The notes under the pieces: model-generated
Seen by the model: the letters and a program-made list of their open reading frames with translations, nothing else
Told to the model about the DNA's origin: nothing
The model's database searches: none
Translations under genes and position numbers: made by a program
Shown here: positions 59,389 through 63,977 of the stretch, piece by piece
Layout: the number at the start of each line of letters is the position of its first letter
Numbering within the stretch: the first letter of the stretch is position 1
NCBI RefSeq assembly: GCF_028713855.1
Contig: NZ_JAQTNN010000004.1
Location: 62,001 to 126,000, forward strand
Length of the DNA stretch: 64,000 nucleotides
Source of the DNA: Sulfuricurvum sp.
GTDB lineage: Bacteria > Campylobacterota > Campylobacteria > Campylobacterales > Sulfurimonadaceae
Direction of reading: 5' to 3'

Positions 59389-60597
59389 ATGTATCGCCAG
59401 ATCGCATACTTTAGCCTCGGATGGATCGTTATCGTGCTCTGTTCATTTGGATGGGGATATTACAACAGCCGCCAGAAGGATGACCAAAGCATATTGGAAA
59501 TGAGCCGTGCTTTCTTCGGGCAGATTGTCCTCACGCGAGAATGGAACGCTTGCCACGGCGGCGTGTATGTCTATGCCGATGAGAAGACCCCGCCAAATCC
59601 CTATCTTGTCAAAGACCCGGAGCGGGACATTCCCCTACAAAATGGAAAACTGCTGACCAAAATCAACCCCGCCTATATGACCCGACAGCTCTCCGAACTC
59701 GCCGCGCAGTACAACGGAGCACAGATCCATATCACGAGTCTCAAACCCATCCGTCCGGCTAACGCACCGACGCCATGGGAACGCAAAGCTCTGAAATCTT
59801 TCGAAACAGGTATCAACGAAGTAGGTACCTTTACGGACGGACACTATCGCTACATGGCCCCCTTGTTTATGCAAAAAAGCTGCATGAAATGCCACGAACA
59901 GCAGGGGTATAAGGTCGGAGACATCCGCGGCGGTATTAGCATCACCCTCCCCTACAACCGCTACGCTTCCCTCTCACCACGCATCACAGGTTATCTGGCA
60001 GTTACTGCGGCAGGACTGCTGTTTATTCTGTTCTTCGGTCGCCGCCTCGCTAGAGCCTATCAAATGCTCGAAGAACAGAGCATTATCGATCCCCTGACAG
60101 AGATTCCCAACCGCCGTTTCTTTATGAAACGGGCCGAAGAAGAGTTCCGGAGTGCCGGACGCAACCATACCCCAATCGCCTTGATTATGATCGATATCGA
60201 CTATTTCAAAGGCTTTAACGACCGCTACGGCCATATAGAAGGAGATATCACCCTAAAAACGGTGGCCGAAGCGATGAAACATCAGCTGCGACGACCTCCG
60301 GACTGCATCGCCCGCTATGGCGGGGAAGAGTTTATTATCATGCTGCCCAATACCATGCCAGAAGGGGGTGCTCAGGTTGCCGAGTTGCTACGCACCAAAA
60401 TTGAAGCGCTGCAAATCAACAATGAAGCTTCCAAATGTGCCGACGTAGTGACCATCAGCCTCGGTGTTGCCTCTGCTCCTCATGATAGCGTCTCTTTCGA
60501 AACCCTGCTCAAGCATGCAGATGAAGCGCTCTATACTGCCAAGCAAAAAGGTCGCAACCGCAGCGAGAGCATAATTATCCAACCGACGACGAAATAA
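59389..60597 (+). CDS. heme-type sensor diguanylate cyclase (DUF3365-GGDEF)
   Basis: 402 residues. Membrane helix at about 5-24, a periplasmic DUF3365/Tll0287-like domain with ACHGGVYVYADEKTPPNPYL and CMKCHEQQGYKVGDIRGG (CxxCH heme site), a second helix near 203-221, then a GGDEF domain with intact GGEEF and a DxD (IMIDIDYFKGFND). It would make cyclic di-GMP in response to a periplasmic redox or gas signal. Same sensor as the HD-GYP protein at 6552. AGGAG ribosome binding site at about 59373. Confidence 0.9.
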   Translation: MYRQIAYFSLGWIVIVLCSFGWGYYNSRQKDDQSILEMSRAFFGQIVLTREWNACHGGVYVYADEKTPPNPYLVKDPERDIPLQNGKLLTKINPAYMTRQLSELAAQYNGAQIHITSLKPIRPANAPTPWERKALKSFETGINEVGTFTDGHYRYMAPLFMQKSCMKCHEQQGYKVGDIRGGISITLPYNRYASLSPRITGYLAVTAAGLLFILFFGRRLARAYQMLEEQSIIDPLTEIPNRRFFMKRAEEEFRSAGRNHTPIALIMIDIDYFKGFNDRYGHIEGDITLKTVAEAMKHQLRRPPDCIARYGGEEFIIMLPNTMPEGGAQVAELLRTKIEALQINNEASKCADVVTISLGVASAPHDSVSFETLLKHADEALYTAKQKGRNRSESIIIQPTTK

Positions 60598-61680: not shown

Positions 61681-62292
61681 CTATCGAGTAAGTTTCAAGG
61701 CTATAGCGGCAACATGCCTGCCTTGATATCTAGCTCCGGAGAGTTCGTTATCACTTGGGAAGCGGCTGCCGTCGCCACCCGCAATCGTCGACGCACCATA
61801 GGGCGAACAACCGGTGATCTGGTCAGAAGACGATTGTCCTGCAAAGGTATAGGGTAGCCCGACAATTACCATACCATGATGCAGCAGCGTAACGTGAAAC
61901 GTTAGGATCGTCGACTCCTGTCCGCCGTGCTGAGTACCGGAGCTGGTCATTACGCTTCCAACCTTGCCGACCAAAGCCCCTTTGACCCACAGTTTGCCGG
62001 TTGCATCGAGAAACTGACGCATCTGAGCACACATGTTACCAAATCGCGTCGGCGTGGCGAAGATCACAGCATCGGCCTCAGCAAGTTCATCCAGTGTACA
62101 GACAGGAATACCGGCTTGCTCTTTTTGAGCTTCAGTCGCCCCCATCTTGTCCAGAACATCGGTTGAAAGCGTCTCAGGAACACGGCGTAATATCGCTTCA
62201 GCCCCCTCCATTGATACGACTCCTTCCGCTGCCGCCTGAGCCATCCGATAGATATGTCCGTACATCGAGTAGTACACAATCAAGACTGTCAT
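61681..62292 (-). CDS. wrbA: NAD(P)H:quinone oxidoreductase WrbA
   Basis: 203 residues, the usual WrbA size. FMN site [19 protein letters not shown], flavodoxin-like [20 protein letters not shown], and [15 protein letters not shown]. It reduces quinones by two electrons to avoid superoxide. Strong AAGGAGG ribosome binding site. Divergent from the encapsulin operon. Confidence 0.95.
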
Positions 62293-62401: not shown

Positions 62402-62431
62402 TTGACATCCTTTCTTTTGCCTCTGTACCAT
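62402..62431 (+). promoter_or_regulatory. promoter of the encapsulin operon
   Basis: TTGACA (62402-62407), 18 bases, TACCAT (62426-62431), then AAAGGAG at 62454-62460 before the ATG at 62466. The 173-base divergent gap with wrbA probably also holds regulator sites; none is named. Confidence 0.45.
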
Positions 62432-62465
62432 TAGGGATATCAGGATTGAACGCAAAGGAGCAATT

Positions 62466-62840
62466 ATGGCACATGAAGGTTTTCACGAAGATCCCACTAA
62501 ACTCTCAGAATTTACAAAAGATTATCACCGCATTATCCAAAGTACCATGGAAGAACTCGAAGCAGTAGACTGGTACAACCAACGCGCCGAAGCTGCAAGC
62601 GACCCTATGGCAAAAGCAATCATGGAACACAACAGGGATGAAGAGATTGAGCACGCCTGTATGGGGCTAGAATGGCTCAGACGCAATTCCATCATATGGG
62701 ATACCATGATGCGAAAATTTCTATTCACAACTACGGATATCGTCGTGCAGGAGTCCGGCAATACGGATCAAACCGTTCAGGGCAGTCCCGAAATCGTTGC
62801 AGCGCCAACGGGGACACTGAAAATCGGCAACAATAGCTAA
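62466..62840 (+). CDS. encapsulated ferritin-like protein (EncFtn cargo)
   Basis: 124 residues. Two-helix ferritin-like core with metal ligands in EELEAVDWYNQRAEA (Glu30/Glu32) and DEEIEHACMGLEWLRRN (Glu60-x2-His63), closely like Rhodospirillum encapsulated ferritin. The extended C terminus ends GTLKIGNNS, resembling an encapsulin targeting peptide (SLxIGSL type). It oxidises Fe(II) inside the shell, as known for the family. Directly followed by the shell gene, 10 bases apart. Confidence 0.92.
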   Translation: MAHEGFHEDPTKLSEFTKDYHRIIQSTMEELEAVDWYNQRAEAASDPMAKAIMEHNRDEEIEHACMGLEWLRRNSIIWDTMMRKFLFTTTDIVVQESGNTDQTVQGSPEIVAAPTGTLKIGNNS

Positions 62841-62850
62841 GGAGCTGACA

Positions 62851-63648
62851 ATGAAATTTTTAAATCGCGAAACGTCACCGATTGCGGCGGCTGTCTGGAC
62901 TCAGATTGACAGTGTGTTTACCCCCTTGCTCAGCCAGCGGCTGAAACTGCGTAGCCTCGTCGGGTTTACCCCCGTCCCTTTTGAAACCGATGCCGTTGCT
63001 ACGGGAAACCTGAAAACGATTACCGCTTCGGAAGCGCTAACCCTGTCAATGAGAAAACCCATTCCGATGGTGGAAATACGATACGATTTCGATCTCCCCA
63101 AATCGATTGTCGAGGCGTTCAAGCGGGACAAACCCGATTTTGACGACTCGATCTTCAAAAAAGTTGCCAACCGTTTCAGCGCCGTTGAGAATTCGCTGAT
63201 TCTTGATGGGGTGAAAGAAGCAGATATTGAGGGAATTTTGAACAATATCCCGCGTAAACCGATACATGCCAAAAATATCAAGGGGCTGATTGACGCGGTC
63301 GCCTCGATGATCGCCGCTTTCGGTTCCGAATTTGTCGAAGGGCCCTACAAGCTCGTCCTCTCAACCGCAACACTGATCAAGATGGTCGGAGAAAGCGAAG
63401 GGGGAGTCAGTGTCAAAAGCCGTTTGGAGACCCTGATCGGAGCCAACTTTTTTGTGGTTTGCGAGAGCATCGGTGACGACAAAATTCTGGCGCTTTCACA
63501 AAGAGGCGGAGATTTCTTCCTGTATAACGGACTGGATGTCAGCATCGGATTTACCGAAGAAAAAGAGGACAGCTATACCCTTTTTATCAGTGAAAGCTGC
63601 ACATTCCGCATCATTAACCCCGAAGCGGCACTTCTTATCACTCTGTGA
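62851..63648 (+). CDS. family 1 encapsulin shell protein
   Basis: 265 residues, the size of T=1 encapsulins (HK97 fold). Begins MKFLNRETSPIAAAVWTQID as in linocin M18/CFP29 relatives, and has the P-domain and A-domain pattern VEIRYDFDLPKSIVEAF, YKLVLSTATLIKMV and FTEEKEDSYTLFISESCTF. It self-assembles to a nanocompartment of about 60 subunits. AAGGAG ribosome binding site overlaps the cargo gene stop. Confidence 0.95.
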   Translation: MKFLNRETSPIAAAVWTQIDSVFTPLLSQRLKLRSLVGFTPVPFETDAVATGNLKTITASEALTLSMRKPIPMVEIRYDFDLPKSIVEAFKRDKPDFDDSIFKKVANRFSAVENSLILDGVKEADIEGILNNIPRKPIHAKNIKGLIDAVASMIAAFGSEFVEGPYKLVLSTATLIKMVGESEGGVSVKSRLETLIGANFFVVCESIGDDKILALSQRGGDFFLYNGLDVSIGFTEEKEDSYTLFISESCTFRIINPEAALLITL

Positions 63649-63665
63649 GCTAAAAAGGAAAACGG

Positions 63666-63977
63666 ATGGAACCCTCTATAACTGAAACCTCAGAATGCTC
63701 CCGGCAGATCAAGAAAGCTGTGGGCGACGCTATGGAATTCCTCTCAGAGGAAAAACAAAAGGAAGTGATTTTAAGCGTCTGCGCCCTGATCAAAGATCAG
63801 CGAAGTGAGCTAGTCAAAGATCCGGATCTCTCTGAAGAGCTGGCGGTCTCAACCTGCAGTATAAGCGACGAGGTGCTAGCGGAACAAGAGAGGATTCTCG
63901 AAGAGGTGATTACGAAACATCATATCAAAAAAGGCGTTCGTTACGACTTTGAAAAGCACCGACGTAAACCATCATAA
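63666..63977 (+). CDS. unrecognised third protein of the encapsulin operon
   Basis: 103 residues, hydrophilic, predicted helical, three cysteines (SECSRQ, SVCALI, STCSIS). AAAGGA ribosome binding site 6 bases before ATG, 17 bases after the shell stop. No C-terminal targeting peptide of the usual type is visible, so cargo status is not supported. The next gene would lie outside the window. Confidence 0.8.
   Translation: MEPSITETSECSRQIKKAVGDAMEFLSEEKQKEVILSVCALIKDQRSELVKDPDLSEELAVSTCSISDEVLAEQERILEEVITKHHIKKGVRYDFEKHRRKPS

What the first reader, a model, noticed from the sequence alone, without database searches (positions are those of the whole stretch)
62466..63977. Encapsulin nanocompartment operon with encapsulated ferritin
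The sequence shows an EncFtn-type cargo (Glu30/Glu32, Glu60-x2-His63) ending in a targeting-peptide-like GTLKIGNNS, followed after 10 bases by a 265-residue HK97-fold encapsulin. A putative iron-storage compartment in a Campylobacterota sulfur oxidiser is notable, and the C-terminal peptide differs from the common SLxIGSL form.
Basis: partly seen in the sequence, partly recalled or inferred. Interest (0 to 1): 0.75.

Follow-up and report, generated by a model that had tools for sequence, protein, structure and literature searches.

The report
Iron-storing encapsulin with unusual docking tail
This sulfur-oxidising bacterium carries a two-gene set for a virus-like protein shell that encloses an iron-oxidising ferritin; the system is a known kind, but its close relatives share an altered docking tail and altered shell pore that have apparently not been described.

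Summary
62466-62840 encodes a 124-residue encapsulated ferritin (EncFtn). After 10 bases, 62851-63648 encodes a 265-residue Family 1 encapsulin shell. Both pass curated cut-offs and model onto solved relatives. The ferroxidase residues (E30, E60, H63) and the shell's peptide-gripping residues (R34, D229) are present. The third ORF inside the given coordinates (63666-63977) is absent beside the pair in relatives and is not part of the system. The cassette is patchy: 6 of 41 genomes of the genus (Sulfuricurvum).

In 58 non-redundant tail/shell pairs, the third anchor of the targeting peptide is Leu/Met/Ile in all 46 ordinary ones, but Asn in all 12 of one Campylobacterota clade that holds the window. 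Mutating this Leu to Ala in Klebsiella abolishes loading. The same clade has shell residue 35 changed from Lys/Arg to Ser/Ala/Gly, and the five-fold pore motif Tyr-Pro changed to x-Ser. All sit on one long stem branch, so co-adaptation is plausible but not shown; peptide-contact positions as a set are not enriched for clade differences. Docking could not be modelled here. Verdict: a real Family 1 EncFtn encapsulin, and a lineage variant of a known kind.

The parts
62402..62431 (+). Probable sigma-70 promoter, TTGACA-N18-TACCAT
   Evidence: 10/12 matches; recognisably conserved upstream of EncFtn in four other Sulfuricurvum genomes
62454..62460 (+). Ribosome-binding site of the cargo gene (AAAGGAG)
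   Evidence: Sequence; conserved
62466..62840 (+). Encapsulated ferritin (EncFtn) cargo, 124 aa
   Evidence: TIGR04535 135.8 bits, PF22277; PDB EncFtn hits; AlphaFold model TM 0.91-0.94 (target-normalised) to R. rubrum EncFtn
62553..62654 (+). Span of ferroxidase ligands E30 (62553-62555), E60 (62643-62645), H63 (62652-62654)
   Evidence: Invariant in 30-sequence alignment; equivalents of R. rubrum E32/E62/H65 (PMC11202242)
62811..62837 (+). C-terminal targeting peptide GTLKIGNNS; Asn123 (62832-62834) stands where Leu/Met/Ile is the third anchor elsewhere
62839..62844 (+). Ribosome-binding site of the shell gene, overlapping the cargo stop codon
   Evidence: Sequence
62851..63648 (+). Family 1 encapsulin shell protein, 265 aa
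   Evidence: NF041155 151.6 bits, PF04454; T. maritima 3DKT E 4e-35; AlphaFold pLDDT 92, TM 0.91-0.93 to T. maritima, H. ochraceum and K. pneumoniae shells
62950..62964 (+). Peptide-groove residues R34 (conserved), S35 (Lys/Arg in canonical shells) and G38 (usually Asp)
63403..63417 (+). Five-fold pore loop G-V-S-V-K in place of the canonical G-Y-P-[L/V/I]
   Evidence: position
63532..63540 (+). L228-D229-V230: D229 binds the peptide backbone in solved shells (conserved); residue 228 is Gln in most others, Leu in this clade
   Evidence: role from PMC10960027

Best explanation
A two-gene operon makes a T=1-type encapsulin shell and a ferritin-like ferroxidase cargo. The cargo (EncFtn) forms a decamer with ferroxidase sites at subunit interfaces. 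Its flexible C-terminal linker ends in LKIGNNS, which docks into a groove on the inner face of each shell subunit. Leu and Ile fill two hydrophobic pockets and the backbone is held by R34 and D229, while Asn replaces the usual third hydrophobic anchor in a groove that has lost its Lys/Arg35. Fe2+ enters through the five-fold pores, is oxidised by EncFtn, and is stored as ferric mineral inside the shell, buffering iron and limiting oxidative damage. Shown: gene identities, folds of the single chains, ligand conservation, clade-wide conservation of the tail. Inferred from studied relatives: assembly, decamer, docking, ferroxidase activity, storage role.
For: Family profiles over curated cut-offs. 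PDB matches for both proteins. Confident models matching solved shells and EncFtn. Invariant ferroxidase residues. Cargo and shell adjacent in all 13 phylum-sample genomes with a tail-bearing EncFtn. Tail core 74% identical across 12 species while the preceding 14-residue linker is 12% identical, so the tail is under constraint. Shell R34 and D229 identical in all 44 shells compared. The only other ferritin-superfamily (PF00210) hit in this genome is a Dps-like protein. Promoter-like element and tight 10-base spacing.
Against: No biochemical evidence; docking was not modelled. In K. pneumoniae, changing the equivalent third-anchor Leu to Ala abolished cargo loading (PMC10960027), so a peptide with Asn there could in principle bind poorly. 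Peptide-contact positions as a set are not more diverged between clades than the rest of the shell (permutation p 0.91), so there is no statistical proof that the groove was remodelled.
Confidence: 0.88

Rival explanations
1. Two-anchor docking: the third pocket is simply unused. The Asn makes no specific contact and loading relies on Leu, Ile and backbone contacts, perhaps giving weaker or partly loaded shells.
For: Earlier ferroxidase cargo peptides were described with two rather than three hydrophobic contacts (PMC10960027). Leu1, Ile3 and Gly4 of the tail are invariant in the clade.
Against: The Asn is invariant in 12 of 12 species, not a drifting position, which argues for a positive role.
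Confidence: 0.35
2. The shell and cargo are a stress-protection device (removing Fe2+ and oxidants) rather than an iron store.
For: Patchy presence (6 of 41 genomes of the genus) suggests an accessory role; encapsulin ferritin systems are proposed to do both (PMC8346489). A WrbA-like flavoprotein is encoded divergently next door here and in L105.
Against: No peroxidase or other enzyme is in the cassette. Carriers do not differ significantly from non-carriers in having a second, higher-scoring ferritin (1/6 v 12/35, p 0.64), which neither supports nor excludes a storage role. Storage and protection are not exclusive.
Confidence: 0.3
3. The tail is vestigial and cargo is not encapsulated; EncFtn works free, like the short tail-less EncFtn proteins of many proteobacteria.
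For: Tail-less EncFtn of about 95 aa, with no matched shell gene nearby, are common, including three genomes of the window's own family (G010, G041, G147).
Against: The tail is conserved while its linker is free to drift, and it occurs together with the shell gene.
Confidence: 0.05

Closest known systems
Haliangium ochraceum encapsulin : EncFtn (PDB 7OE2, 7ODW, 5N5F)
   Same: Same two proteins; cargo about 50% identical and shell 29%; C-terminal docking peptide; same shell size
   Different: Its peptide is GSLGIGSLR with Leu as third anchor; its pore has Tyr188 and Lys192 (PMC8791618). Here Asn, and x-Ser at the pore
Rhodospirillum rubrum EncFtn Rru_A0973 (PDB 5DA5)
   Same: Best fold match, TM about 0.92, 55% identity; same ferroxidase ligands
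   Different: Its targeting tail and shell were not compared here; the shell is not among the sequence hits listed by name
Thermotoga maritima encapsulin (PDB 3DKT, 7KQ5)
   Same: Best sequence match among solved shells, E 4e-35, TM 0.91
   Different: Its flavin-stacking tryptophan (W90 in PMC8610991; Trp at position 87 of the sequence aligned here) is Ser in the window, and its pore Tyr is absent
Canonical EncFtn encapsulins of other Campylobacterota (L115, L116, L117, L119)
   Same: Same phylum, same two-gene order; their shells are the sister group of the window's clade
   Different: Leu third anchor (GSLK), Lys35 and Gly-Tyr-Pro pore; shells only 27-32% identical to the window's
Klebsiella pneumoniae DyP encapsulin (PDB 8U50)
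   Same: Family 1 shell; R34 and D229 grip the peptide backbone
   Different: Cargo is a DyP peroxidase; peptide SLNIGSLK with three hydrophobic anchors, each essential (PMC10960027)

Membership tests
Family 1 encapsulin | Match to the curated Family 1 shell model above cut-off | tested here: met
   NF041155 151.6 bits, cut-off 100
Family 1 encapsulin | HK97-type encapsulin fold over full length | tested here: met
   AlphaFold pLDDT 92; TM 0.91-0.93 to solved Family 1 shells
Family 1 encapsulin | Cargo gene in the same operon with a C-terminal targeting peptide | tested here: met
   EncFtn 10 bases upstream, ending in LKIGNNS. The peptide is atypical: its third anchor is Asn, not L/M/I, so canonical three-anchor docking is not claimed
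Family 1 encapsulin | Peptide-gripping residues R34 and D229 | tested here: met
   Both present; identical in all 44 shells compared
Family 1 encapsulin | Five-fold pore Tyr188, well conserved in Family 1 T=1 shells (usual, not defining) | tested here: not met
   Val in the window; Tyr in 0/12 of its clade and 40/46 others
Family 1 encapsulin | Self-assembly to an icosahedral shell | not testable with these tools
   Needs expression and electron microscopy
Encapsulated ferritin (EncFtn) | Match to curated EncFtn model above cut-off | tested here: met
   TIGR04535 135.8 bits, cut-off 125; PF22277 128 bits, cut-off 27
Encapsulated ferritin (EncFtn) | Ferroxidase ligands Glu, Glu, His (R. rubrum E32, E62, H65) and conserved Tyr39 | tested here: met
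   E30, E60, H63, Y37 invariant; roles from PMC11202242
Encapsulated ferritin (EncFtn) | Two-helix antiparallel fold matching EncFtn | tested here: met
   Helices 15-43 and 47-73; TM about 0.92 to 5DA5
Encapsulated ferritin (EncFtn) | Decamer and iron-oxidising activity | not testable with these tools
   Single-chain prediction only

The most novel reading that the evidence does not exclude
One Campylobacterota clade has rewritten the cargo-docking code of Family 1 encapsulins. The hydrophobic third anchor became an invariant Asn, the facing shell groove lost its Lys/Arg35, and the five-fold pore lost its Tyr-Pro gate. If so, cargo and shell would be orthogonal to canonical systems (neither would accept the other's partner), and the pore would pass iron differently.
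Probability: 0.3. Interest if true: 0.6.

Novelty: new variant of a known kind. Interest (0 to 1): 0.4.

Why it matters
Encapsulins are being engineered as loadable nanocages, and most tags rest on the LxIGSL-type peptide, whose anchors were found intolerant to alanine in one careful study. A natural clade that keeps an Asn at an anchor otherwise essential gives a ready-made test of how strict the code is, and possibly an orthogonal tag and shell pair. It also puts iron-storing encapsulins in Campylobacterota, for which I found no paper in the library searched. The iron-storage biology itself is as expected.

Tried and rejected
Third ORF (63666-63977) as an operon partner: rejected; no family match, found only in this genome apart from one weak hit (30% identity, E 4e-4), and other genes follow the shell in relatives.

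Secondary cargo with the same tail: the pattern LxIGxN-x-stop in the whole genome gave nine hits; apart from the EncFtn tail, the four checked were not ends of sizeable ORFs; other hits end in TGG (not a stop) or were not checked, and other spacings to the stop were not scanned.

Enrichment of clade differences among peptide-contact positions: tested, negative (p 0.91).

Mutual-information docking of tail and shell: position 35 ranks 3rd for the third anchor, but many non-contact positions rank as high, as expected for one clade; not usable as proof.

Coupling of tail residue 5 with shell residue 38: Fisher p 2e-5, but only 3-4 independent pairs on the tree, so not significant once relatedness is counted.

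Encapsulin replacing classical ferritin within the genus: no significant pattern.

Full report
What is there. The window end holds two adjacent plus-strand genes, 62466-62840 (124 aa) and 62851-63648 (265 aa), separated by 10 bases, each with a good ribosome-binding site. A promoter-like element TTGACA-N18-TACCAT (62402-62431) lies upstream and is recognisably conserved in four other Sulfuricurvum genomes.

Identity. The cargo passes the curated EncFtn model (TIGR04535, 135.8 bits against 125) and Pfam EncFtn-like; its best solved relatives are H. ochraceum and R. rubrum EncFtn. The shell passes the Family 1 encapsulin model (NF041155, 151.6 against 100) and matches T. maritima encapsulin over its whole length. 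AlphaFold models from native alignments are confident (shell mean pLDDT 92; cargo above 95 over its helices, disordered from residue 101) and match solved Family 1 shells at TM 0.91-0.93 and EncFtn at about 0.92. E30, E60, H63 and Y37, the equivalents of R. rubrum ferroxidase residues (PMC11202242), are invariant in 30 sequences.

Distribution. In the window's family the shell is found in 8 of 228 genomes and EncFtn in 11; the three extra EncFtn proteins are short and tail-less, with no matched shell nearby. The pair is in 6 of 41 genomes of the genus. Of 397 genomes sampled across the phylum, 14 have an EncFtn: 13 with tail and shell, one tail-less. The genome's only other ferritin-superfamily (PF00210) hit is Dps-like. 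No paper in the library searched holds encapsulin together with Campylobacterota, Sulfuricurvum or Sulfurovum; of the two that hold it with Epsilonproteobacteria or Arcobacter, PMC6934571 (looked into) does not treat such systems in the passages shown, and PMC9765461 (not read) holds each word once. Subscription papers and supplementary tables were not covered, so earlier listing of these sequences is quite possible.

The tail. I collected 72 tail and shell pairs, 58 after removing shells at 90% identity or more. Aligned on L1-x2-I3-G4-x5-(6)-x7, residue 6 is Leu, Met or Ile in all 46 pairs outside the window's clade (Pseudomonadota, Actinomycetota, Halanaerobia and other Firmicutes, Kosmotogaceae, and four Campylobacterota) and Asn in all 12 of the clade. 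Five further tails of the TIGSL/TVGSL type also have Leu there. No register of the window tail offers a hydrophobic third residue: what follows Ile-Gly is Asn-Asn-Ser. Within the clade L1, I3, G4 and N6 are invariant, and the core is 74% identical while the preceding 14 residues are 12% identical, so the tail is constrained. In K. pneumoniae, alanine at any of the three hydrophobic anchors or at the terminal Lys abolished loading, and R34 and D229 of the shell were crucial (PMC10960027). The window keeps R34 and D229. It lacks the Lys (Ser instead) and shell Asp38 (Gly instead), the salt-bridge pair of that structure; both losses occur together in the Sulfuricurvum members and in no other clade member, which is a single event.

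The shell. The Asn-tail shells form one clade (support 100/100) on a long stem (1.18 changes per column), sister (99/96) to the canonical Leu-tail Campylobacterota shells. The cargo domain gives the same clade with weaker support. Two clade-wide shell differences touch function. Residue 35, a peptide contact in M. tuberculosis (PMC11676171), is Ser/Ala/Gly in 12/12 and Lys/Arg in all but two of 46 others. The five-fold pore loop Gly-Tyr188-Pro189 (Tyr in 40/46, Pro in 43/46) is Gly-x-Ser with Lys two residues on in the clade (Ser 12/12, Lys 12/12). Tyr188 forms an inner bound of the closed pore in H. ochraceum (PMC8791618).

How far this goes. Because these changes share one branch, their co-occurrence counts as a single event and cannot prove co-adaptation. 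A direct test, whether peptide-contact positions differ between clades more than other positions, was negative (p 0.91): the contact set is dominated by conserved residues. A charge pairing between tail residue 5 and shell residue 38 (9 of 10 Asp5 tails face a non-acidic residue 38, against 8 of 48 others) fits the known groove but does not survive the tree-based test.

Mechanism. Best supported is the standard one: cargo decamers docked inside the shell by their tails oxidise iron that enters by the five-fold pores and deposit it as mineral. Gene identity, single-chain folds and conservation are shown here; assembly, docking and activity are inferred from relatives. Verdict: a genuine Family 1 EncFtn encapsulin. 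The family is known; the Asn tail with its own shell clade is a lineage variant worth a bench test.

Noticed in passing
window 61681-62292 (-): WrbA-like flavodoxin-fold protein transcribed divergently from the encapsulin operon; the same arrangement occurs in one other Sulfuricurvum (L105) but not in the others examined, so probably not a partner.
   Followed up: partly
window 63666-63977 (+): 103-aa ORF of unknown family 17 bases after the shell stop, without relatives beside the cassette in other genomes.
   Followed up: yes
L170-L183 and L153-L155: Tails ending GDMK/GDLK mostly go with a basic or neutral shell residue 38 (K/R/H/N), GRMK with Glu38, and GSLK/GSLR with Asp38: a possible charge code between tail position 5 and shell position 38, not significant once relatedness is counted.
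   Followed up: partly
L017-L081 (many), L097-L099, L118: Many proteobacteria, and a few Campylobacterota, have an EncFtn of about 91-102 aa with no targeting tail and no matched shell gene in the fetched flank (the s-FLP type of PMC11202242); their function without a shell is open.
   Followed up: no
L120 1474-1980 (-), genome contig C7: The genome's only PF00210 hit is a Dps/bacterioferritin-like protein with an NCNCG stretch; about a third of the genus has in addition a second, higher-scoring ferritin (about 130 bits).
   Followed up: partly
window 59389-60597 (+): Diguanylate cyclase (GGDEF) with an N-terminal Tll0287-like domain holding a CxxCH-like heme-binding motif.
   Followed up: no
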